Below, piece by piece: positions 28,342-55,648 of a stretch of DNA of 64,000 nt. Origin of the DNA: a candidate division SR1 bacterium Aalborg_AAW-1. GTDB taxonomy: Bacteria; Patescibacteriota; Gracilibacteria; Absconditabacterales; Absconditicoccaceae. The notes beneath the pieces were generated by a model. That model saw only the letters and a list, made by a program, of their open reading frames with translations, was not told the origin of the DNA and did no database searches. The stretch is taken from NCBI GenBank assembly GCA_001007975.1, contig CP011268.1:682001-746000 (forward strand), given 5' to 3'. Both the position numbers and the translations under genes were made by a program. Position 1 is the stretch's first letter. Every line of letters starts with the position of its first letter.

Positions 28342-28809
28342 TTATATGATAAGACCCATTTTGTAATACAATAATTTCTTGGCTATGTGCTCATGTTGTT
28401 TACAATCACATCTTCCTAAGAACTTTGCATCATTTAGTTGAAAATTATTTTCATCTACCACTACTTGTTGTAAATATACATCTTTCTCAAATACACATTC
28501 GTTGCAATAAAAATGATTTATGTGGTGAGATTTGGAAAAATAAAAATTTTTCTTAAAGTATGCTCTACCACAATTTACATTATTTTTAAAGATAGAATTT
28601 TCTAAGTCAACAATCTCTTCAAACACAGAGTCATTAAACATAACAATTTGTTCAAATTGAATATTTCTTAAATAAATTGGATAGGTGTATTCTCCATGAA
28701 AGTAGACTTCATCTTTTATGGAGATAAGCTCTTGTAAATCTCTTAAATCTCCTTTTTTCTCTTTTAAAAGCTCAAAGAACTCTTTTACTGTAATTTTTTT
28801 TGTTTCCAT
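28342..28809 (-). CDS. pentapeptide-repeat-like protein, divergent copy
   Basis: 155 residues. N-terminal KEFFELLKEKKGDLRDLQ and DEVYFHGEYTYPIYLRNIQFEQ match the start of the neighbouring 199-residue gene, and both end with a KMGLII/KMSIIV tail. The middle has spaced Phe and Cys (FKNNVNCGRAYFKKNFYFSK) in a decayed right-handed beta-helix pattern. It carries CDC-type cysteines near the end (GRCDCKQHEH). No TGA codon. The two genes and their terminators look like a tandem duplication with divergence. Confidence 0.75.
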   Translation of the reverse strand: METKKITVKEFFELLKEKKGDLRDLQELISIKDEVYFHGEYTYPIYLRNIQFEQIVMFNDSVFEEIVDLENSIFKNNVNCGRAYFKKNFYFSKSHHINHFYCNECVFEKDVYLQQVVVDENNFQLNDAKFLGRCDCKQHEHIAKKLLYYKMGLII

Positions 28810-28842
28810 AATTTTATTTAATTTTTTGTTTTAATTATTAAC

Positions 28843-28871
28843 AATATACATATTAATTAATATAATGTCAA
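28843..28871 (-). promoter_or_regulatory. sigma70-type promoter of pentapeptide gene 1
   Basis: On the minus strand TTGACA (28871-28866), 17-base spacer and TATATT (28848-28843), 34 bases before the ATG. Confidence 0.65.
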
Positions 28872-28916
28872 GTGTATATTTTCTTGAGTTTTATTATTGA
28901 TTTTTGTGATATAAAA

Positions 28917-28945
28917 AAGCAGGAGAGTAAAATACTTTCCTGTTT
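28917..28945 (-). terminator. terminator of pentapeptide gene 2
   Basis: AAGCAGGA paired with TCCTGTTT around a loop, minus-strand T tract; sister of the 28300 element. Confidence 0.7.
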
Positions 28946-28960
28946 TAATTGGTTAAGATA

Positions 28961-29560
28961 TTATACGATAATACTCATTTTGTGATTTTTTATTTTTTCT
29001 TCAATCTCCTTGTATCTACTAATAGCCCGTATAGTATTTTTAAAGATTGCATTTCCACAATCAAAATCATTTTTGAATGTAGCATGTCCACAATTAAAAT
29101 AAGATGTAAAAACACTATTTTCACAGAAGAAGCCATTTTCAAAAGTAGCATCTCCACAGTAAAATGAATTCTTGAAAGTAGCATTTCCACAGAAGATACC
29201 ATTTTCAAAAGTCGCGTTTCCACAATTAAAAGGATATTTAAAAGTAGCATCTCCACAGTAAAATGAATTCTTGAAAGTAGCATTTCCACAGAAGAAGCTT
29301 TTTTCAAAGGTGGCTTTTTCACAGAAGAAGCCATTTTCAAAAGTTGCTTTTTTACAGAAGAAATATTCATTGAAAATAGTCTCTCCACAATACACATTTT
29401 TTTCAAAAATGGTATTACCTAATTCAATAGGATAGTCGTATATCCCGTCAAAATTAACTTCATCTATGACATGTACTCGATAGTCAAGAGAGTTTAAATT
29501 TCCTTGTGACTCCACTAAGAGTGAGAAGAACTCTAATGAGGTCTTTCTTATTGCTTTCAT
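28961..29560 (-). CDS. pentapeptide-repeat (PF13576-like) protein with a cysteine ladder
   Basis: 199 residues. About eleven tandem 11-residue units (consensus CGNATFKNSFY) form residues 50-175; each unit has A-T-F and a Phe/Tyr face and nearly every unit has one Cys, stacking Cys residues along one side of the predicted right-handed beta helix. At the DNA level the unit is 33 bases and some copies are near-identical (about 29150-29290). Pentapeptide proteins often mimic DNA or act as effectors or toxin inhibitors. N-terminal KTSLEFFSLLVESQGNLNSLDYR is shared with the neighbour. No TGA codon. Confidence 0.85.
   Translation of the reverse strand: MKAIRKTSLEFFSLLVESQGNLNSLDYRVHVIDEVNFDGIYDYPIELGNTIFEKNVYCGETIFNEYFFCKKATFENGFFCEKATFEKSFFCGNATFKNSFYCGDATFKYPFNCGNATFENGIFCGNATFKNSFYCGDATFENGFFCENSVFTSYFNCGHATFKNDFDCGNAIFKNTIRAISRYKEIEEKIKNHKMSIIV
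29150..29300 (-). repeat. 33-base tandem repeats inside pentapeptide gene 2
   Basis: Adjacent coding units of 33 bases, several nearly identical (for example the copies near 29150-29180 and 29250-29280), showing recent expansion or gene conversion. Confidence 0.7.
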
Positions 29561-29598
29561 ATATTATAAATTTAAGTTAATGATTTTATTTTCAATTT

Positions 29599-29627
29599 AT
29601 CATAATAATTTTTATGTTAAATGTCAA
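29599..29627 (-). promoter_or_regulatory. sigma70-type promoter of pentapeptide gene 2
   Basis: Minus strand TTGACA (29627-29622), 17-base spacer and TATGAT (29604-29599), 39 bases before the ATG; parallel to the promoter of the paralogue. Confidence 0.65.
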
Positions 29628-29652
29628 GTAAATGTTCTCTGAATTTTTATTG

Positions 29653-29680
29653 TTGATTTTGGAGCACAAAACCGTATAAA
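29653..29680 (+). promoter_or_regulatory. sigma70-type promoter of aspS
   Basis: TTGATT at 29653-29658 and TATAAA at 29675-29680 with a 16-base spacer, 33 bases before the aspS ATG. Confidence 0.6.
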
Positions 29681-29712
29681 GTTGCTGATTTTATTGATTG
29701 ATAGTATTTCTT

Positions 29713-31470
29713 ATGCATCGTACTCATACTTGTGGTGAACTGACTTCTGCTCATGCTTGACAAACGGTTACTCTTTGTGCTTGGATTTCATCTTTGAGAA
29801 ATATGGGAGGACTGGTTTTTGTGGATTTGAGAGATAGATATGGAGTGACACAAGTGACGCTGGATCCTGCGATTGTAGGACAAGAGCTTGTAGATAAAGC
29901 AGCGAGCTATAGCAATGAATACGTCCTAAAAGTAACAGGAGAAGTGATCCTTAGACCAGAGAGTATGAAAAATCCTGATATGGTGACCTGAGAGATCGAG
30001 ATTCGTGCAACCGATATACAACTTGTGTCAGAATCCAAGATTTTGCCGTTTGCAATCGATGAAGATCCGAAGACGAGCGAAGAAAATAGAATGAAATATC
30101 GTTATCTTGATCTTCGTAGAGGGCCGGTGAAGGATAATATTATCTTCCGTGCGAAGATGAATCAGTTTACGCGTAATTGGTTTAGTGATCATGATTTCTT
30201 AGAGGTACAGACACCGATCTTCAGTGTTTCATCTCCAGAAGGAGCGAGAGATTATCTGATTCCAAGTCGTGTGAATCCAGGTCAGTTTTATGCTCTTCCC
30301 CAAGCTCCTCAACAATACAAACAACTCCTCATGGTCGGTGGTATCGATAAGTATTTCCAGATTGCACCCTGTTTTCGTGATGAAGATCCAAGAGCAGATC
30401 GCCATAGTTGTGAATTCTATCAGATCGACTGTGAGATGTCATTTGTCGAACAAGAAGATGTGTATACGGTAGCAGAATCGTATATCCGTGACTTGATAGA
30501 GTATATCGTTCCCCATAAAGAAATCATCGTAGATTTTACGAGACTTTCGTATCATGATGCGTTAGAAAAATATGGATCAGATAAGCCTGATTTGAGGTTT
30601 GACTCTCAGATGATCGAGGTGACATCACTTTTTGCAAACAGTGAATTGGAGTTTCTCGCTTCAGCTCCAAGTGTGAAAGCTATAGTGCTTCACCAACTTC
30701 CTACCCGTAAAGAAATCGATGCTCTGATTGAAGTGGTCAAGATAGCAGGATTGGGAGGATTGGCGTATATCCAAATTAAGGAAGACGGAATTTCTGGTTC
30801 GATAGCTGGTAAACTGACGGAAGAAGAAAAACAATCTCTTCTGACTGAAACTCACGCTCAGGTCTGAGAGACCGTATTTTTCCTTGTAGGTAAGAAGACT
30901 ACTGTGTTGAAAGCTGGAGATAAACTCAGAAATGCCTGTAGGGATATGTTCTGACTGGTACATAATAATCATCTCTGATTTGTCTGGATTGAAGATTTTC
31001 CGTTCTTTGAAGAAGATGAAAGTAAACCGAATGGGCTTGAATTTGGACACAATCCGTTCTCATATATCAAAGGAGGACGTGATACGGTAGAAAACGTACA
31101 ACCTCTCGAGCGACAAACAACTCAATACGATCTGACTTGTAATGGTTATGAAATTCTTTCTGGTTCTATCCGTAATCACGATCCAGAGATTTTGGTGAAA
31201 GTGTTTGAAACAGCTTGATACACCATTGATGATATTAAGAAGAGATTTGGTACCATGTACGAAGCATTCCAATACGGATGTCCACCACATGGAGGATTTG
31301 CGTTCTGATTTGATCGTCTGATGATGATCCTCAGAGATGAACCAAATATCCGCGAATGTTATGCTTTCCCAAAATCTGGTCGTGCACAAGATCTTATGAT
31401 GAATGCACCAAGCACTATCGATCCTGAAGAATTGAAAGTCTTGTCTATTGCTACGACTATTACTGAATAG
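29713..31470 (+). CDS. aspS: aspartyl-tRNA synthetase
   Basis: 585 residues, the bacterial AspRS size with the GAD insertion. The N-terminal anticodon-binding OB fold has [17 protein letters not shown]; motif 2 is [16 protein letters not shown] followed by [11 protein letters not shown]; the C-terminal part has [12 protein letters not shown] and motif 3 [15 protein letters not shown]. The second Gly of motif 3 (TGA at 31306-31308) is an invariant residue, one of the best proofs of the code. Whether the enzyme is tRNA-Asp-specific or charges tRNA-Asn too (for GatCAB) is not visible. Seven TGA codons. Own promoter and terminator. Confidence 0.96.
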
Positions 31471-43052: not shown

Positions 43053-45230
43053 CTATTTGTTATTTTCAAGAGCTTGGATTCTTGCTTCAAGAGCATCGAT
43101 TTGAGCTTGTTGATTAACATATTTGTCGAAGAGTTCATCAATCTTAGCAGAAAGTTCTTTCACCGCTTCGATAAGTGGAGCAACAAGATTTCCATAGGCT
43201 ACTGATTTGTATCCATCAGCATCAGTTTGAACAAGTGATGGGAATACTTTCTCTACTTCTTGTGCAATCACACCGATATCATTTTTTTCTGAGAGTTTGT
43301 TATAGTAACTATATCCATTCAGTTTAAGGATATTATCCAAAGAAGAAGTTAAAGGAGTGATATCTGACTTATATTTGGCGTCTGAATTGTAGTAGTATGC
43401 ATTGGCTCTTGCACTACCGTTTACATTTAGTCTATCACTACCTGGATCGAACGCTGCATCGTGTCAGATAATAAGGTTTTCAGTAATAGATGCGTTACCA
43501 CGGACATCAAGTTTCTTTTGTGGGGTAGCAAGATTAGTACCGATACCTACACGACCTCCAGAAGAGATGGTGAAGAGAGAACCAGCTCCCGCTTTTTCAA
43601 TATAGAATTGACTATCATTCATGCTAAGACCATTGTAACCTGTACCTCCTACTCCATATCTCCATCTTACTTGAGCACCATTTACGATATCGATCAGTGC
43701 AGTACTATCCCATGCTGTTGTAGGATAATCAGGTATCTTACGAATAAATTCAGCAAGCTGATATTGATTACCATTCACTTCAAGAGGTACGCTTGACCAC
43801 CATCATCTTCTTCTATCAGGTGTACCTACACGAAGTCCGTATTGAATTGTAGCAGTGCTAGTGTTGAATGTACTACGAGTATCACGAACATTCGTTCCTA
43901 CATTCATAATTCCACTATGCCAGTAACTACCAGCACTAATCATAGTTAACCAACTTGGTCTTACCAAATCCATAAAAGGAGGATATACTCCAGTAGGAAG
44001 TTGATAGTTATTATAGAAATCATCACTACCAGTATACCAGTTCATTCTAATGTTTCCTAACATGAATGTTTCATTACGATCTGTATTTACTGAAACAGTT
44101 GGGTATGATTCGTATGTGTTACATTCCATACGACCTTCTTCAACAGCACGTTCATCATATGGTGCTCGATTCCATGGGTCATCACCTGATTCTGTCCATC
44201 GACAATCATCTCTATCTATAGTGATCGCTCTACTACCAAACTGTACTGTACCTCATCTCTCTACGTGAAGAGTGGCTTCTGGATTAGTGGTGTTGATACC
44301 GAGACTGGTTTGTGCTCCTTCAGCAGTAAAGGTAAATTGTGTATTTTCACGATTTGTATTGTTCATTCTTGCTGATTTGAAATTTATTTTTCAAGTATCT
44401 ACAGTATTATCAAGACTTGTATAATTGTCTGTGTCATCCATATTTACTTTAAGATTTCCTCCTTCATTGGCTTTATCTCCATCTACTTTCCTGATGAAGT
44501 TACCTCCACGGGATTCGATAGAACCAGCAACTACCATTGCTGTATCAGGTTTAGCAGCAATAGCATTGTTGTTATCTGTTGCACCAACTCTTAGGAAGTT
44601 GTTATTATTTACTGTACTTTCTTCTCCACTTGCTGTCGCAAAAAAACTATCATTCGCATTCGAAGGATTACGCTTGAAGACATCACCATTTGTACTACCC
44701 ATTCGTTCGTTGAATTGGTCACGAGTTCGTATATGTACAGTACCATTAGTATCTGTCATCATAACACAGTAAATATCTTCAATATCTACTTGTGTATCGC
44801 CTCCTTCAATTGGAGGATCAATAATAGGATCATCAATACTTGGATCTATCTGTATTGCTTTAGATTGAGATTGGCTGAATCTTTGTCCTGCTGCTATAGC
44901 CTCAGAACATTTCAGTTTAGTAAAGGTAATATTACCATTTGAAGTAAGATTTCCTGCTACGTTAAGATTCCCATTTCAAGGGACACCATTTCCTTTTATG
45001 GTGACATTCCCATCTACTCAATCTAAAATAATAGTAGCAGCATCGTCTGTGACTTTCGTACCACTTGGTGATAGAAAGATTTGTCTAATGGCAATACGCA
45101 TATTCTCGATAGTCGATGGAATACTGAGCTGTGCATAAGCGATACTACCTACAAGAGCGCTAGCTCCTAGCATCAGTCCGAGAACCAGAGCAGAGTGCTT
45201 TGAACTAAAGAATGATGAAGATTGTTTCAT
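43053..45230 (-). CDS. surface fibre protein with C-terminal S74 intramolecular chaperone
   Basis: 725 residues with a signal segment (SALVLGLMLGASALVGSIAYA). The body is beta-rich with repeated GGxVGIGTxxPQKKLDVRGNASITENLI-type segments, as in trimeric phage tail fibres. The C-terminal domain (about 620-700) has SDAKYKSDITPLTSSLDNILKLNGYSYY and DIGVIAQEVEKVFPSLVQTDADGYKSVAYGNLVAPLIEAVKEL, the Peptidase_S74 signature, in which a Ser-Lys dyad (SDAKYKSDI) releases the domain after trimer folding. A coiled coil ends the protein. Four TGA codons. Confidence 0.92.
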
Positions 45231-45693: not shown

Positions 45694-46656
45694 CTATTTT
45701 TTGATGATTTTATGAGTGATGAGTTGATCATCTACCTTAATCTGAAGGATATAGAGACCTGCAGGGAGTTTACTCACATCGATAAACTGTTCAGAGTTCA
45801 GATTTTTTCCAGTAATGAGTTGCTGTCCACTCGTTGCGTAGATACGATATTCATCAACTTTGTTGTTGTTCATGAGTTTTATTGCTATTTTCTCAGTTGT
45901 TGGGTTTGGGTAGACTGTTGTTTGTATCATATCAAGCTCTTCAGTTCCCATAGATCCATTTACCCAATCTACGATATTACGTTGAGGGTAACCTGTTGGT
46001 CCACCGAGACTATCTTCTCGTTGTCGATTAGTATTGAGCTTTTTATAAGAAAATTGTTTATCTAATAAAGTTGCACCTCATACATTGTTAACAATGATTG
46101 GAGTACTAAACATTGCTATATCTCCAATTTGAAATCCAGCAGTTTGAGCAGCAGCTCCTGTTGGGAGTTGGTCATGAATATTGATAAAAGCATCTTTCAA
46201 CCCATCATTATTGGTATCAGCAAGAGCTTTTTTCATATTCATAGAGAGATTGATACCCAGACTATTCGTGTTTGTCTGTACAGTCTTCTGAAGAGCTGTT
46301 GCTTGATCCCAGGTTATAGTAGTACTTCCTACTGTTTCAGAAGCAATAGTTGGTGCAGTAACTCAACCAACTGCAGAGGTATTAACGAAGGTTCCCCCCC
46401 CACTTCCATTTGATCTCCAGAAACTTGGTTGTGAAGCAAAAGAGTCTGATGTTCCTACATCAATATTTTTCGGTCCAGTAAAGTTATAGGATGGATTGTT
46501 AGTAGAACTACCATTTGCGAAGGTGATGGTCTTGTAAATTTGTCCATTCGTACCTGTGACTGTTTGGTCAAGAGCCATCTGTGCATCTACTTGTTCAGCA
46601 GCTAACATTCATCCAGCTATCATCATAGCTTTACCCATATTGGTGATTGTATTCAT
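45694..46656 (-). CDS. secreted protein with type IX secretion-like C-terminal sorting domain
   Basis: 320 residues. The N terminus is hydrophobic (MGKAMMIAGGMLAAEQVDAQ) and may be a signal peptide. A central beta-rich part contains NDGLKDAFINIHD. The last 75 residues run VYPNPTTEKIAIKL, YRIYATSGQQLITGKNL, FIDVSKLPAGLYILQIKVDDQLITHKIIKK, which reads like a Bacteroidetes T9SS type A sorting domain (YPNP...SGQ...LPAGLYI...K.IK). Nothing else of a type IX machine is in the window. The gene carries an in-frame run of eight C (46394-46401), a slippage-prone site. Only three TGA codons. Confidence 0.8.
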
Positions 46657-46807
46657 GTTGTGAATAGTACTATAAAAGATAAAATCTCTATTTCTCTAAT
46701 CTTATTATATCACTTTTTCTATAAAATGCAAGAGAAAGTGGAGAAAATGAATAGTGGTAATAGGAGTTTATTATCTGAGATAATGGTTGTGTTGTTGTAG
46801 AGAAAAA

Positions 46808-50273: not shown

Positions 50274-53200
50274 TTATTTTTTTAGGCAGAGAGTGATGGT
50301 ATGATCTCCTAGTGTAAGATCTTTCGTGATATCATAATCTGCTCATCCATAGATTATAGTACTCAGCGTTTCTTCTTGAATAGTCGCACCGTGATGATTG
50401 ATGAGTTCTTCTGCATATAATCAGGTTATCTCGAGTTGGATACGATCAGCGATGTCATAATTAATTTCTTTACGAGCGTCTTGTATCGATCTAATAAGAT
50501 CACGAGCATATCATTCTCTCTTCAGTTCTGGAGTGATAATCCAATCGATTTTCATAACAATACCATTATCAACTTCAATATCTTCAGATTCATCTGTTTT
50601 GATGTAGGATATTTCATAGCTTCAAGCTGGTAAAAGCCATTCTCCTACAACTACTGTTCCATCACTTCCTTCTACAAATTGTCCTGATTTTGCAAGTGCA
50701 AAAATATCTTTCGTTGCTCATCAGAATAATTGTCCAATAACTTTCCCATCAGGTTTACAAATTTTCGTCACATGAGTATTCAGTGAGGGATCTGAATGTA
50801 CTGACTTCATATTCAGTTCTTCGGCAATAATATCCAAATAATACTGATCAAGTGATATTCACAAGATGAGGTTTGAAAGTGGTTGTCTTACTCTTATATT
50901 TTTCTTGCCTCTGGCTGCTAGTCCCATACGTACAATGTCTTGTGCTGCATTCATCTGGTCAGAAAGTTCTTTGTTTGCTGAGAGTTCTAGTGATGGGAAA
51001 TCTTGGAGATGAACGCTATTGAGTTCAGAGTGATCAGGTGAGAGTGTAGAGTTAGTCAATGTTCTCCATATATACTCGCTGATAATAGGCATAAATGGTG
51101 ATGCTACCACACAAAATTGAGTGAGAACAGTATAGAGGGTCGCATAAGCAAATGACTTGTCACTATCGCTATCAGATTTTCGAAATCTTCTTCTTGATCT
51201 ACGGATATACCAATTCGTAAGATTTTCTAGAAACTTGTTAATCTGACGAGAAGAGTGTGTGAGGTCATAGTTAGCCAAGTCCTCATCGATAGTTATGATA
51301 AAGGTTTGGAGTTCTCATAGAATCCATTGATCGAGACGATTATCAGAAGATTGTGCTTGATAAATAGCTTCTTTACTATTGCTTACTGACCAGTTATCGA
51401 TGTTCGCATACGTCACAAAAAATCAGAATGCATTCCAGAGGGGAAGAATATTTTGTTTGAGTGCTTCCAATATTAATTCTTCTGAAAATGACATATCTCC
51501 TCCATTAAATAGTGGAGTAGTGAGGATAGACATACGGACAGCATCTCATCAATATTGTTCGAACGTAGGTTTTGGATCTGGGAAATTACCAAGTGATTTG
51601 GACATTTTACGACCGTCATTACCAGCAATGACTCCATGACATACGACATTGGTAAAGGCAGGTTTATCAAAGAGAGCTACTCCCAAGACGTGCATAACAT
51701 AAAACCAGGCTCTGATCTGACCAGTATATTCGACGATATAATCAGCTGGGAACGATGCTTCGAATTTTTCTTTATTTTCAAAAGGATAGTGTACTTGAGC
51801 ATAGGGCATCGAAGCTGATTCCATCCAACTATCTAATACTTCAGGAGTTCTTGTATATTTCTTTCCATCTTTTTCAAACCATACATCATCGATATAGGGT
51901 ACGTGCATATCTAATTCTGCATCACGAGTCGTATTTCGATAGATGGTTGTTCCGTTTTCTTCTTTTTTGATAAGAGTGTTTGACCCGTTGAGTTGGAGTT
52001 GATAGAGTTCTTCACGCGAACCGATGGCAATGAGATCTTTACCATCTTCTGATCTATAAATAGGCATCGGAGTACCCCAAAATCTGGTACGGGATATACA
52101 TCGATCTGGAGCTGATTCAAGTGATTTTAAGAAACGACCATGTTTGTTGTGGGCAGGATATCGATTTATTTTTTCATTTTCTTCAATACATCTTTCTTTC
52201 AGTGATTTTCCTCAGAAGATATCTTGTGGACCATTAATGTCGATAAACCAACTATCTTGTGCTTTATAAACCAGAGGAGTCCCTGATCTTGGACAAAAGG
52301 CTACACGGTGAGTGATCGATGCTTTATGAAAGAGCTTACCCATATCATGGAGTTCTTGTATAATGATGGGGTTGGCATCACGATAGAATATTCATGCTTT
52401 ATCTCCCATAACTGATGTATAATGTCCACTACTATCCATTGCTTCGGTAATAGTCAGACCAACTTGTTTTGCTAGTTGAAAATCTACCTCTCCAAATTCT
52501 GGAGCTTGGTGGACGATCCCGGTTCCATCGGTGTCTGATACAAAATCAGCATGGTAAATTTTATGATCATTTGGATTATTGGTCTTACCATAGAGATACT
52601 CAAATGGTGGTTTATAAGAAAGTCCTACAAGCTGTGCTCCAAGAAATTCTTCAATAATTTCAACTTCTTTGTTTGCAAAAACTGCTTCAAGACGAGATTT
52701 CGCTACGATATAGTAAGCACTATTATACAACACTTTCACATAGGTAAGATCTTTATGTACTCCTGCTGCAATATTGGTAGGTATCGTCCAAGGTGTTGTC
52801 GTCCAGACGAGGATAGAGGTAGTAGTAAATGGAGATTGTCGCGGATTTTTTTTAGTAAGCCATATTACATCTATAGATTTAGATGGTGTAAATTCAAATT
52901 GATCAGCCATATCAGGATTGACGATAAATCCTAATGATTCATAAAATGATAAAGCATTCGTATTGTTTTTGGAAACTCCTAATCCTAAAGTATTATATTG
53001 TAGTCATTGTAGTGATATATCCATAAGATGTGCTCATAAACCTTTCCCTTGATGATTTTCTTCAATATAAATTCAACCAATACGATGAATGTTTCTATTT
53101 TCATCAAACCAAGGATTGTATTTTATTCAAACAATATCTCATTGATATTTGAGAACATAGTATTTTTTTCATTCTTGAATTCCTTTTGTAATTCTTTGAA

Positions 53201-54011
53201 TATTTTTTTCATCTGATTCATCAAATTTAGCATCAATTTCTTCAACGGATAATCAATCATCAATATAAGTTGTTTTCCAAGTTTCTCTCCTAACTTTTTC
53301 AATATCTTTTGCATCGGAAGCTTGCGCTAATTCAATACTATATCATTCTGGCAATCAATAACTATGAGTAACATCAAACGCTACGGTAATAGCCGGATCA
53401 TTGACGTCTTCGTAAGTATCATCCATAGCAACTTCGAAGTTTGAGATTGGAGTTTCAAGCTTGGTCGAATACATCGATACACGTTTCCCTTTGTAGATGA
53501 GTCATTTATCCCAAAGTGTCTTGAAGACTCGCCAAACCGACTCCATATAGTCGTTATCCATCGTTTTGTAACTCTTGTCAAAATCTACCCAACGAGCAAA
53601 TTGATCGATATATCGTTTTCGTTCAGAAGACATTCCACGTGTATAGTTGTAACACTCTTCAATAAATTTCTCTACTCCTACTTTGTGGATATCAAGATTA
53701 GACTCTAGTCCAAGTTTTGTTTGAACTTTTTGTTCAATAGGTATCCCATGACAATCCCATCCCCAAACACGATCGACTCTTTTCCCTTTCATGGTTTGAT
53801 ATCTTGGTATGACGTCTTTGGCTACAGAACTTGCTAAATGTCCATAGTGAGGGAGTCCAGTTACAAATGGAGGTCCATCGTAGAACCTAAACTGATTATG
53901 AGGATCTTTATTTTTAATAGATTGTTCAAAAATATGATTTTCTGACCAATAGGTATGTACGGTTTGAAAGATATCGTTAAAGTTTGGTTTGCTAGTCTGT
54001 GGTGTAAACAT
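50274..54011 (-). CDS. ileS: isoleucyl-tRNA synthetase with an inserted GNAT acetyltransferase domain
   Basis: 1245 residues. The N-terminal Rossmann half has GLPHYGHL (the HIGH motif, in the eukaryote-like IleS2 form, residues 55-58) and WGWDCHGIP; KMSKS is at about 802-806 after GVIAGNDGR; the editing domain motif WTTTPWTIPT is at 403-412. Between AFDVTHSYGLPEG and that motif sits about 165 extra residues (224-388). They form a complete GNAT domain: EKVRRETW, the acetyl-CoA loop IYIEENHQGKGLGAHLMD and the GFI-type strand NNTNALSFYESLGFI. All codons are open under code 25 (no TAA/TAG) with about 25 TGA glycines. Without the insert the size, about 1080, fits IleS2. Confidence 0.93.
52848..53342 (-). 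other. GNAT domain insertion inside ileS
   Basis: Encodes residues about 224-388 of the synthetase. The QGKGLG pattern (321-326) matches the Q/RxxGxG/A acetyl-CoA site, and SKNNTNALSFYESLGF (347-362) matches motif B. The insert lies in the connective peptide just before the editing-domain strand WTTTPWT. Base composition and TGA use look like the rest of the gene, so the insertion is not a recent foreign element. Confidence 0.88.
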
Positions 54012-54171: not shown

Positions 54172-55425
54172 TTATTGTTTGACCCATGTTGTTCAGACAA
54201 GATTTCGAGTTCAATGTGCTTGAGGTAAAGCTGTTGTAATACTTAAACTATTTTTTGTTGGTCAATTGTTTTGGAATGCATCTTCAAGATGTGTTATAGA
54301 AGAAGGAATAGTTACAGATGTGAGATTGTTTCTTGAAAATACTCCATATCAAATAGTAGTTACGGAAGAAGGAATAGTAATAGTTGTGAGATTATTTCAA
54401 GCAAAAGTATTGCCCCACATAGTAGTAATAGAGTTTGGGATAGTTACAGAAGTTAGCAAGTTGTTTGAGAAAGAGTCATTATACAGAGTAGTAATAGAGT
54501 TTGGGATAGTTACAGAAGTTAATCTATTATTTGCAAAAACACTACTTCAAAATTCTATTACAGAGTTAGGTATATCAACACTAGTGATTTGATTATTTGC
54601 AAATGCAGCATATCTAATACGCATTACAGAAGAAGGAATGATCAGGGAGTTGTTTATTTGATTTAAAAAGAATGCTTGTGTATCAATTAAAACAATAGAG
54701 TTAGGTAATATAACAGAGGTTAGTCATTTATTATAAAAAGCATATGATCAAATTGTTGTTACAGATATTCCATTAATATTATTAGGTACAACAACATCTT
54801 TAGGACAAGAATTACTATATGCTGAAATAATACCATTTGCAAAAGTGAAACAATTGGGATCTGTAGAAGGTATATTAATATCTGTTGTAAGTCCTTGACC
54901 TACTTTTTGGAAATTACCATCATTGTTTTTGTCGACAGTGTTACCACACGCACTTGCATTACCTTTTTTGGATTCTTTGGTAGAAGTGATAGCATACAGA
55001 GAGCCAGAAGGATCGGTATAGTAGGCATAAGAACTACCAGCAGTGATACATTCACCTGCACTGGATGATGAGATTCCAGTTCCTTTAGGATCTTTGGGTA
55101 AAGAAGTCATATAGGATGATAGAGAAGAAGATATTGAATCTAAGGAACTTCAGGCAGTCTGTGCGAAGGTTGTAGGTAGGAGTAATGTACTCAGTGAAAC
55201 AGCAGGTTTAACAAATGCATAGATAGCAATAGGATAGGAATTGTTATCAAGTTTGTAGGATTCAAGTGCTGTAGAAACGTTACGCATATCAGCGGTACGA
55301 GCAGTATCACGAGCACGAGCTTGCATACCAGTAATTCTAGGAATGAGAGCGGCTGCGAGTATCCCGATAATCACGATGACAATAAGCATCTCTACAAGGG
55401 TGAATCCATAACGGTATTGTTTCAT
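54172..55425 (-). CDS. type IV pilin-like protein fused to BspA-like leucine-rich repeats
   Basis: 417 residues. The N terminus MKQYRYGFTLVEMLIVIVII is a classical prepilin signature (cleavage after Gly7, Glu at +5), followed by a pilin-like helix and KLDNNSYPIAIYAF. Cysteine-containing linkers (GECITAG, NASACGN, NCFTFANG, SNSCPK) lead to about nine 23-residue repeats (NNLTSVTIPNSITTIGYGAF), a BspA-type LRR_5 beta-solenoid. Two adjacent repeats are identical at the DNA level over about 35 bases (54421-54458 and 54490-54525). Start set at 55425 because the prepilin sequence begins there; an upstream in-frame ATG is unlikely. Seven or more TGA codons. Confidence 0.85.
54421..54525 (-). repeat. 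69-base tandem LRR repeat
   Basis: About 35 bases are identical at a 69-base period in the LRR part of the pilin gene, a sign of recent duplication or gene conversion. Confidence 0.75.
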
Positions 55426-55648
55426 CTGCTCTACATAGTGAATTAAAATTATTATTATCATGACCATATATAAAGTGTTCGCTTATTGCAAATCAATTAT
55501 TATACTAATATCTTGACTTACAGCTTTTATAGTAGATTTCTTTATAGAGTTGGAGATGGTTTTATAGAATAAAAAATTTTTCTATTTGCAAAACAAGGGT
55601 AAATAACTACATTCATAATATACTGTTTTACTTAATAGTTTAATAATA
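55426..55648. promoter_or_regulatory. divergent promoter region
   Basis: AT-rich spacer between the pilin-LRR gene and the lipoprotein gene. A TTGACT at about 55513 and several TATAAT-like blocks are present, but no unique promoter can be assigned. Confidence 0.35.

What the first reader, a model, noticed from the sequence alone, without database searches (positions are those of the whole stretch)
45694..46656. Type IX secretion-like sorting domain in a code-25 bacterium
Seen: the last 75 residues follow the Bacteroidetes type A sorting domain pattern (YPNP, SGQ, LPAGLYI, K-rich end). Known: that domain targets cargo to the type IX system, described in Bacteroidota. Inference: either horizontal acquisition with the recoded TGA code retained, or a convergent Ig-like cap with another function.
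Basis: partly seen in the sequence, partly recalled or inferred. Interest (0 to 1): 0.7.

Follow-up and report, generated by a model that had tools for sequence, protein, structure and literature searches.

The report
Standard-code T9SS-tailed genes in SR1 bacteria
A surface-sorting tail known from Bacteroidota is really present in this tiny recoded (SR1-type) bacterium, and its relatives carry dozens of similarly tailed genes that strictly avoid their own cell's extra glycine codon and bear Bacteroidota-style translation and sorting signals, as if written to be read inside a Bacteroidota host cell.

Summary
In detail: window 45694-46656 (-) encodes a 320-aa, code-25 protein whose last 73 residues are a genuine T9SS type A sorting domain (62.6 bits, cut-off 23). 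It is the only copy in its 1.04-Mb genome. The cell has no machinery for it: Sov/SprA, PorU and Omp85/BamA are absent across the order, with positive controls. 29 of 49 genomes of the order carry such tails.

The unexpected result lies in those relatives. 56 tailed genes contain 3064 glycine codons and no TGA glycine, where about 1006 are expected; out-of-frame TGA is normal. Three end on TGA as a stop. Syntenic orthologues saturated at silent sites stay TGA-free, so recent transfer alone fails; TGA-rich EF-Tu in several of these genomes argues against expression level. The set also has A-rich leaders matching Flavobacterium's initiation signals, Bacteroidota-like signal peptides and a shared TTGACTTT/TATA promoter that is not Bacteroidota-type.

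Best reading: a host-directed gene set, transcribed in the SR1 cell and translated in a Bacteroidota host. The exclusion is shown; host translation is inferred. The window's gene is the exception: 3 TGA codons, native promoter and leader, so it is read by its own cell.

The parts
45694..46656 (-). Tailed protein P0001 (320 aa, code 25; 3 TGA = Gly, 27 GGN)
45697..45915 (-). T9SS type A C-terminal sorting domain (residues 248-320)
   Evidence: TIGR04183 62.6 bits, PF18962 51 bits, AF2 pLDDT > 90 and Foldseek to T9SS substrate CTDs
46582..46638 (-). Signal-peptide-like segment (residues 7-25) followed by A-Q, as in Bacteroidota secreted proteins; prediction by eye only
   Evidence: sequence; AF2 helix at residues 2-21
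46609..46611 (-). in-frame TGA read as Gly16
46363..46365 (-). in-frame TGA read as Gly98
46078..46080 (-). in-frame TGA read as Gly193
46704..46731 (-). sigma70-like promoter TTGCAT-N16-TATAAT upstream of P0001, followed by a leader that is not A-rich (unlike the TGA-free tailed genes of relatives)
   Evidence: sequence printed; comparison

Best explanation
SHOWN: the tail is a true T9SS type A sorting domain in a code-25, SR1/Absconditabacteria-type bacterium with no detectable T9SS translocon, sortase or Omp85. Relatives in the same order carry 1-6 tailed genes each. These belong to a larger set of Bacteroidota-like genes that excludes the recoded codon TGA in frame, has A-rich leaders with peaks at -14..-11, -6 and -3, has Bacteroidota-like signal peptides, and often shares a TTGACTTT...TATA promoter. 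Syntenic members stay TGA-free after silent sites have saturated, under purifying selection. INFERRED: the set consists of host-directed genes. They are transcribed in the SR1 cell (sigma70-type promoter, not the Bacteroidota -7 element TAnnTTTG), delivered (most simply as mRNA, possibly as DNA) to a Bacteroidota host, translated there by standard-code ribosomes and, for tailed products, exported by the host's Sec and T9SS to the host surface; cytosolic members (PurA, PyrF, PhoH-like) would alter host metabolism. The window's gene P0001 is a member or descendant of the tailed group that is translated by the SR1 cell itself: it has gained three TGA codons and has a native-type promoter and leader. 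Its tail is then either a leftover Ig-like cap or acts only after the Sec-exported protein reaches the host. I cannot choose between these two.
For: Domain. No T9SS or outer-membrane assembly, with controls. TGA exclusion: 56 genes, 3064 GGN, 0 TGA, about 1006 expected, log10 P about -573; per 1000 codons in frame 0.08 against 26.0 in other genes, other frames equal (20.9/38.5 against 22.0/39.9). Standard-code stops: three genes end on TGA exactly at the tail's canonical end. Not recency: syntenic orthologues at pS about 0.7, dN/dS roughly 0.15-0.2, half to two thirds of shared Gly codons changed, many Gly gained or lost, still 0 TGA, while the adjacent fam7 gene uses TGA for about 40% of Gly. 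Not expression level: EF-Tu has 24, 18, 20 and 13 TGA in G045, G046, G047 and G025. Leader: 60% A / 21% T against 35 / 44 in TGA-using secretory genes, P = 5e-16, peaks where F. johnsoniae needs A (PMC6847099). Signal peptides with [AGSCT]-Q after the hydrophobic core: 70% and 90% against 22%. Shared promoter: TTGACT in 21/54 forward against 1/54 reverse and 25/268 of other genes; TAnnTTTG not enriched; promoter and leader conserved in orthologues. PurA: Bacteroidota-type copies TGA-free with A-rich leaders in all six genomes read in full, 47-58% identical to each other; distantly related PurA-like copies in other genomes have 27-34 TGA. A PorP/SprF-family outer-membrane protein, TGA-free, in G042.
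Against: No transfer of mRNA or DNA to a host has been seen, and no host is known for these genomes. Known Absconditicoccaceae hosts are Gammaproteobacteria (PMC13059738, PMC8080830). The Bacteroidota-type promoter is missing, so expression from transferred DNA is doubtful and mRNA transfer is without precedent that I know of. Some housekeeping genes in G042 (EF-Tu, enolase) are also TGA-free, so a translation-level cause exists in that genome. Silent GC of tailed genes follows the genome only weakly (rho 0.36), as recent transfer would give. The window's own gene does not belong to the TGA-free set, and 44% of its genome shows no such set. Starts were assigned by a heuristic.
Confidence: 0.55

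Rival explanations
1. Plain horizontal transfer. SR1 bacteria pick up secreted-protein genes from Bacteroidota neighbours. The genes are TGA-free and carry A-rich leaders only because they arrived recently; the tail has no T9SS and is a harmless cap. P0001 is an older transfer that has begun to collect TGA codons.
For: Domain content is Bacteroidota-like; leaders and signal peptides are Bacteroidota-like; silent GC tracks the genome only weakly; copy number varies between genomes; P0001 has an intermediate TGA share (3 of 30, P 0.02 at the window's share).
Against: Syntenic orthologues at saturated silent divergence still have no TGA and are diverged in step with their neighbours. Promoters are a shared non-Bacteroidota type conserved between orthologues. 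In 296 Bacteroidota genomes the fam9 protein finds only Ig or tail segments, and PurA relatives are only 52-59% identical.
Confidence: 0.25
2. Bilingual shuttling genes: the set moves repeatedly as DNA between SR1 and Bacteroidota and is expressed in both, so TGA is purged whenever a copy passes through a standard-code cell.
For: Explains TGA exclusion, TGA stops and Bacteroidota-type leaders; similar tailed proteins occur at different places in different genera (fam37, fam64). Bicompatible phages of the same bacteria are reported in PMC10746230.
Against: Several members sit at fixed loci with conserved promoters; the Bacteroidota -7 element is absent; no Bacteroidota genome searched holds a close copy.
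Confidence: 0.1
3. Translation efficiency inside the SR1 cell: strongly expressed genes avoid TGA because the special glycine tRNA is slow; A-rich leaders are simply strong leaders.
For: In G042, EF-Tu and enolase are TGA-free.
Against: In G045, G046, G047, G025 and G018, EF-Tu carries 24, 18, 20, 13 and 7 TGA and GroEL of G025 26 of 48, while tailed genes of G045, G046, G025 and G018 have none. Does not explain the Bacteroidota-like signal peptides or the TGA stops.
Confidence: 0.06
4. Assembly or binning artefact: Bacteroidota contigs mixed into SR1 genomes.
For: Two contigs of G010 (C44, C55) look like standard-code contamination; short contigs elsewhere.
Against: Tailed genes lie between TGA-rich genes on the same contigs, including single-contig G042 and contigs over 200 kb, at the same places in different assemblies.
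Confidence: 0.02
5. The tail serves an unrecognised T9SS-like exporter of the SR1 cell itself.
For: The tail is conserved, and P0001 is made in the SR1 cell.
Against: SprA, PorU and Omp85 absent with positive controls; no Omp85 implies no outer membrane; Vampirococcus shows a single membrane (PMC8080830).
Confidence: 0.02

Closest known systems
T9SS type A sorting domain (TIGR04183 / PF18962), e.g. substrate CTDs 8glk, 8glj, 8qb1
   Same: Sequence motifs, length, C-terminal position and beta-sandwich fold; signal-peptide-like N-terminus.
   Different: Occurs in code-25 bacteria with no detectable T9SS or outer-membrane assembly; in relatives the genes exclude the cell's own recoded codon.
Standard-code-compatible phages of Gracilibacteria and Absconditabacteria (PMC10746230)
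   Same: Coding sequences without in-frame TGA inside or around code-25 bacteria, explained by the ability to be translated in standard-code cells.
   Different: Those are phages moving between hosts. Here they are scattered chromosomal genes of the bacterium, with Bacteroidota leaders and sorting signals and a shared promoter.
Viral auxiliary metabolic genes and bacterial injected effectors
   Same: A parasite's genes whose products would act in the host's cytosol, envelope or metabolism (PurA, PyrF, SprF-like).
   Different: The product would be made by the host's ribosomes from the parasite's message rather than injected as protein; no viral genome is involved.
Flavobacterium johnsoniae translation initiation region (PMC6847099)
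   Same: A at -14..-11, -6 and -3, no Shine-Dalgarno.
   Different: Found here upstream of genes in another phylum's chromosome; promoter is sigma70-like, not TAnnTTTG.

Membership tests
T9SS type A sorting domain (TIGR04183) | Score above curated cut-off at the protein's C-terminus | tested here: met
   62.6 bits against 23, residues 248-320 of 320
T9SS type A sorting domain (TIGR04183) | Beta-sandwich CTD fold | tested here: met
   AF2 pLDDT > 90; best Foldseek hit 8glk_D
T9SS cargo protein | N-terminal Sec signal peptide | tested here: inconclusive
   Hydrophobic segment then A-Q by eye; no dedicated predictor available
T9SS cargo protein | T9SS in the same cell (Sov/SprA, PorU) | tested here: not met
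   0/49 SprA, 0/37 PorU; Bacteroidota controls over 1300 bits
T9SS cargo protein | Outer membrane to cross | tested here: not met
   Omp85 0/37, control rings
Recently transferred gene | Recoded codon absent and no deep syntenic orthologues | tested here: not met
   P0001 has 3 TGA; relatives' TGA-free genes have saturated syntenic orthologues
Host-directed standard-code gene set (proposed here) | P0001 itself: no in-frame TGA, A-rich leader, TTGACTTT/TATA promoter | tested here: not met
   3 TGA, leader not A-rich, TTGCAT promoter
Host-directed standard-code gene set (proposed here) | Tailed genes of relatives: no in-frame TGA, A-rich leader, TTGACTTT/TATA promoter | tested here: met
   As a group (not every gene has the promoter):
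Host-directed standard-code gene set (proposed here) | Translation in a host cell | not testable with these tools
   Needs proteomics, RNA imaging or co-culture

The most novel reading that the evidence does not exclude
SR1-type bacteria keep a chromosomal regulon written in another phylum's genetic code and translation grammar: messages made by the parasite and translated on the ribosomes of a Bacteroidota host, whose own T9SS then displays the products on the host surface.
Probability: 0.4. Interest if true: 0.98.

Novelty: categorically new. Interest (0 to 1): 0.88.

Why it matters
If true, a bacterial parasite supplies another bacterium with messages written for that host's ribosomes, a route of host control distinct from injected proteins. 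It would explain why a monoderm without a T9SS keeps T9SS cargo, and would give a sequence-only way to find host-directed genes and predict the host phylum of uncultured recoded bacteria: look for genes that refuse the cell's own recoded codon. The exclusion itself is strong whatever the mechanism, and the host question becomes directly testable.

Tried and rejected
Convergent Ig-like cap: rejected by profile, sequence and fold hits. T9SS in the cell: rejected with controls. Contamination: rejected except for two G010 contigs. Expression level as the cause of TGA absence: rejected in high-TGA genomes. Base-composition cause: rejected by frame control. Bacteroidota promoter TAnnTTTG upstream of tailed genes: not found. 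Orthologues of P0001's N-terminal part: none convincing, matches are mainly to the tail; AF2 of that part is low confidence. The 313-aa secreted G042 protein first guessed to be GldN has no family match, and the G042 SprB-like protein's type B tail is below its cut-off (26.3 against 35). Library searches for CPR plus T9SS gave nothing relevant.

Full report
What was checked. Its last 73 residues are a T9SS type A sorting domain by TIGR04183 (62.6 bits, cut-off 23), PF18962, sequence similarity to solved T9SS substrate CTDs and fold. Residues before about 240 have no family match above cut-off and model poorly. The genome (1.04 Mb, one contig, 98% complete) has one such tail.

What the tail could serve. 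Sov/SprA is absent from all 49 genomes of the order; the same model gives 2815 and 2404 bits in two Bacteroidota genomes. PorU is absent from 37 genomes tested (only weak, below-cut-off matches to its C-terminal part), and Omp85/BamA is absent from the same 37, with controls ringing. A T9SS, and an outer membrane for it to span, are therefore very unlikely. A GTDB record that holds the same locus as G006 is titled 'candidate division SR1 bacterium', so the order is read as SR1/Absconditabacteria.

The relatives. 29 of 49 genomes carry tails, up to six each. I read 60 regions around them plus almost all of the single-contig genome G042. Everywhere the surrounding genes use TGA for 13-80% of glycines, but the tailed genes do not: 56 genes, 3064 GGN codons, no TGA glycine, about 1006 expected. 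TGA out of frame is as common as elsewhere, so the exclusion acts on codons. Three genes use TGA as the stop exactly where the tail should end; code 25 would read through. Two G010 contigs are probably contamination and were left out. A few tailed genes do use TGA: the window's own, one in G029, one in G035 and a weak one in G006; those I could examine have non-A-rich leaders.

Is it recency? In three species the fam9 tailed gene sits between the same neighbours, is as diverged as its upstream neighbour (53-66% identity), and shows the same nearest pair as the other neighbours. Silent sites are near saturation (pS 0.68), dN/dS is about 0.15-0.2, 10-14 of about 20 shared glycine codons have changed and 15-20 glycines were gained or lost per pair, yet none is TGA; the adjacent fam7 gene uses TGA for about 40% of glycines. 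The same holds for the rpsL-locus tails in genera g3 and g21 and for the fam70 pair. Long residence with TGA kept out is therefore shown for these loci. For other members recent transfer remains possible.

Is it expression? Highly expressed genes can be TGA-free in G042 (EF-Tu, enolase), but in G045, G046, G047 and G025 EF-Tu carries 24, 18, 20 and 13 TGA, while the tailed genes read in G045, G046 and G025 have none.

Other marks of the set. The 25 bases before the start are A-rich in tailed genes (60% A, 21% T) and in other TGA-free secreted genes (62/21), but not in TGA-using secreted genes of the same genomes (35/44; P = 5e-16). The peaks at -14..-11, -6 and -3 (69% A against 57% at other positions, P = 6e-4) are the positions reported as positive determinants in Flavobacterium johnsoniae (PMC6847099). 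Signal peptides followed by A/G/S/C/T-Q occur in 70% and 90% against 22%. Upstream, TTGACT occurs in 21 of 54 forward, 1 reverse, and 25 of 268 other genes, followed by TATA-type -10 elements; the Bacteroidota element TAnnTTTG is not enriched. fam9 promoters and G-poor leaders are conserved between species. In G042 the TGA-free genes also have A-rich leaders far more often than TGA-using ones (53% against 4% with at least 55% A). They include a PorP/SprF-family outer-membrane protein, an SprB-like repeat protein, PurA, PyrF and a PhoH-like protein. Bacteroidota-type PurA is found in at least eight genomes without TGA; in the six read in full leaders are A-rich, identities to each other are 47-58% and to Bacteroidota 52-59%; distant PurA-like copies in other genomes have 27-34 TGA.

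Reading. The parts fit one mechanism: genes kept readable for a standard-code, Bacteroidota-type translation and export system, but transcribed from promoters Bacteroidota should not use (PMC6847099 states that their promoter differs so much that E. coli genes are not expressed there). The simplest inference is that messages made in the SR1 cell are translated in a Bacteroidota host, and that tailed products are displayed by the host's T9SS. Transfer of RNA is not shown and is the weakest step. A T4SS-type pilin and a type II/IV secretion ATPase gene lie near one tailed cluster, which may be chance. Known hosts of Absconditicoccaceae are Gammaproteobacteria (PMC13059738, PMC8080830), so the prediction of Bacteroidota hosts for this family is new and testable.

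The window's gene. P0001 does not belong to the TGA-free set: it has three TGA, fewer than expected from the window's share (P = 0.02), a TTGCAT-N16-TATAAT promoter and a leader that is not A-rich. It is best read as a tailed gene now translated by its own cell. What its tail does there is open. 44% of its genome was examined and shows no TGA-free Bacteroidota-like genes.

Limits. Starts were set by a simple signal-peptide heuristic. The genomes are mostly metagenome-assembled. Local TGA shares were used as background, and the binomial figures ignore relatedness between genes. The Bacteroidota comparison covered 296 genomes of a much larger phylum.

Noticed in passing
window 50274-54011 (-): Isoleucyl-tRNA synthetase (1245 aa) carries an inserted GNAT acetyltransferase domain at about residues 227-364 (Pfam).
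   Followed up: partly
window 54172-55467 (-): Prepilin-type N-terminus fused to BspA-type leucine-rich repeats (LRR_5, 172 bits).
   Followed up: no
window 43053-45230 (-): Secreted-looking 725-aa protein next to P0001 ending in a Peptidase_S74 chaperone domain; low TGA share (6 of 64).
   Followed up: no
L032, L037 (G042, G044): Clusters of TGA-free genes lie near a T4SS_pilin (PF18895), a T2SSE ATPase gene and a prepilin-like gene, in conserved order.
   Followed up: partly
L151, L152, L153 (G042, G044, G007): Three-gene operon of SprB-like repeat protein, PorP/SprF-family protein and a third secreted protein in bacteria without Omp85; almost no TGA in the open frames.
   Followed up: partly
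L204-L209: Bacteroidota-type PurA without TGA in several genera, while distant PurA-like copies in other genomes are TGA-rich.
   Followed up: yes
L078, L080 (G010 contigs C44, C55): Almost no TGA glycines on whole contigs: probable standard-code contamination of this assembly.
   Followed up: partly
G042 28730-29905 and 139883-141136: EF-Tu and enolase are TGA-free in this genome, unlike EF-Tu in G045-G047, so TGA use in highly expressed genes varies between lineages.
   Followed up: no
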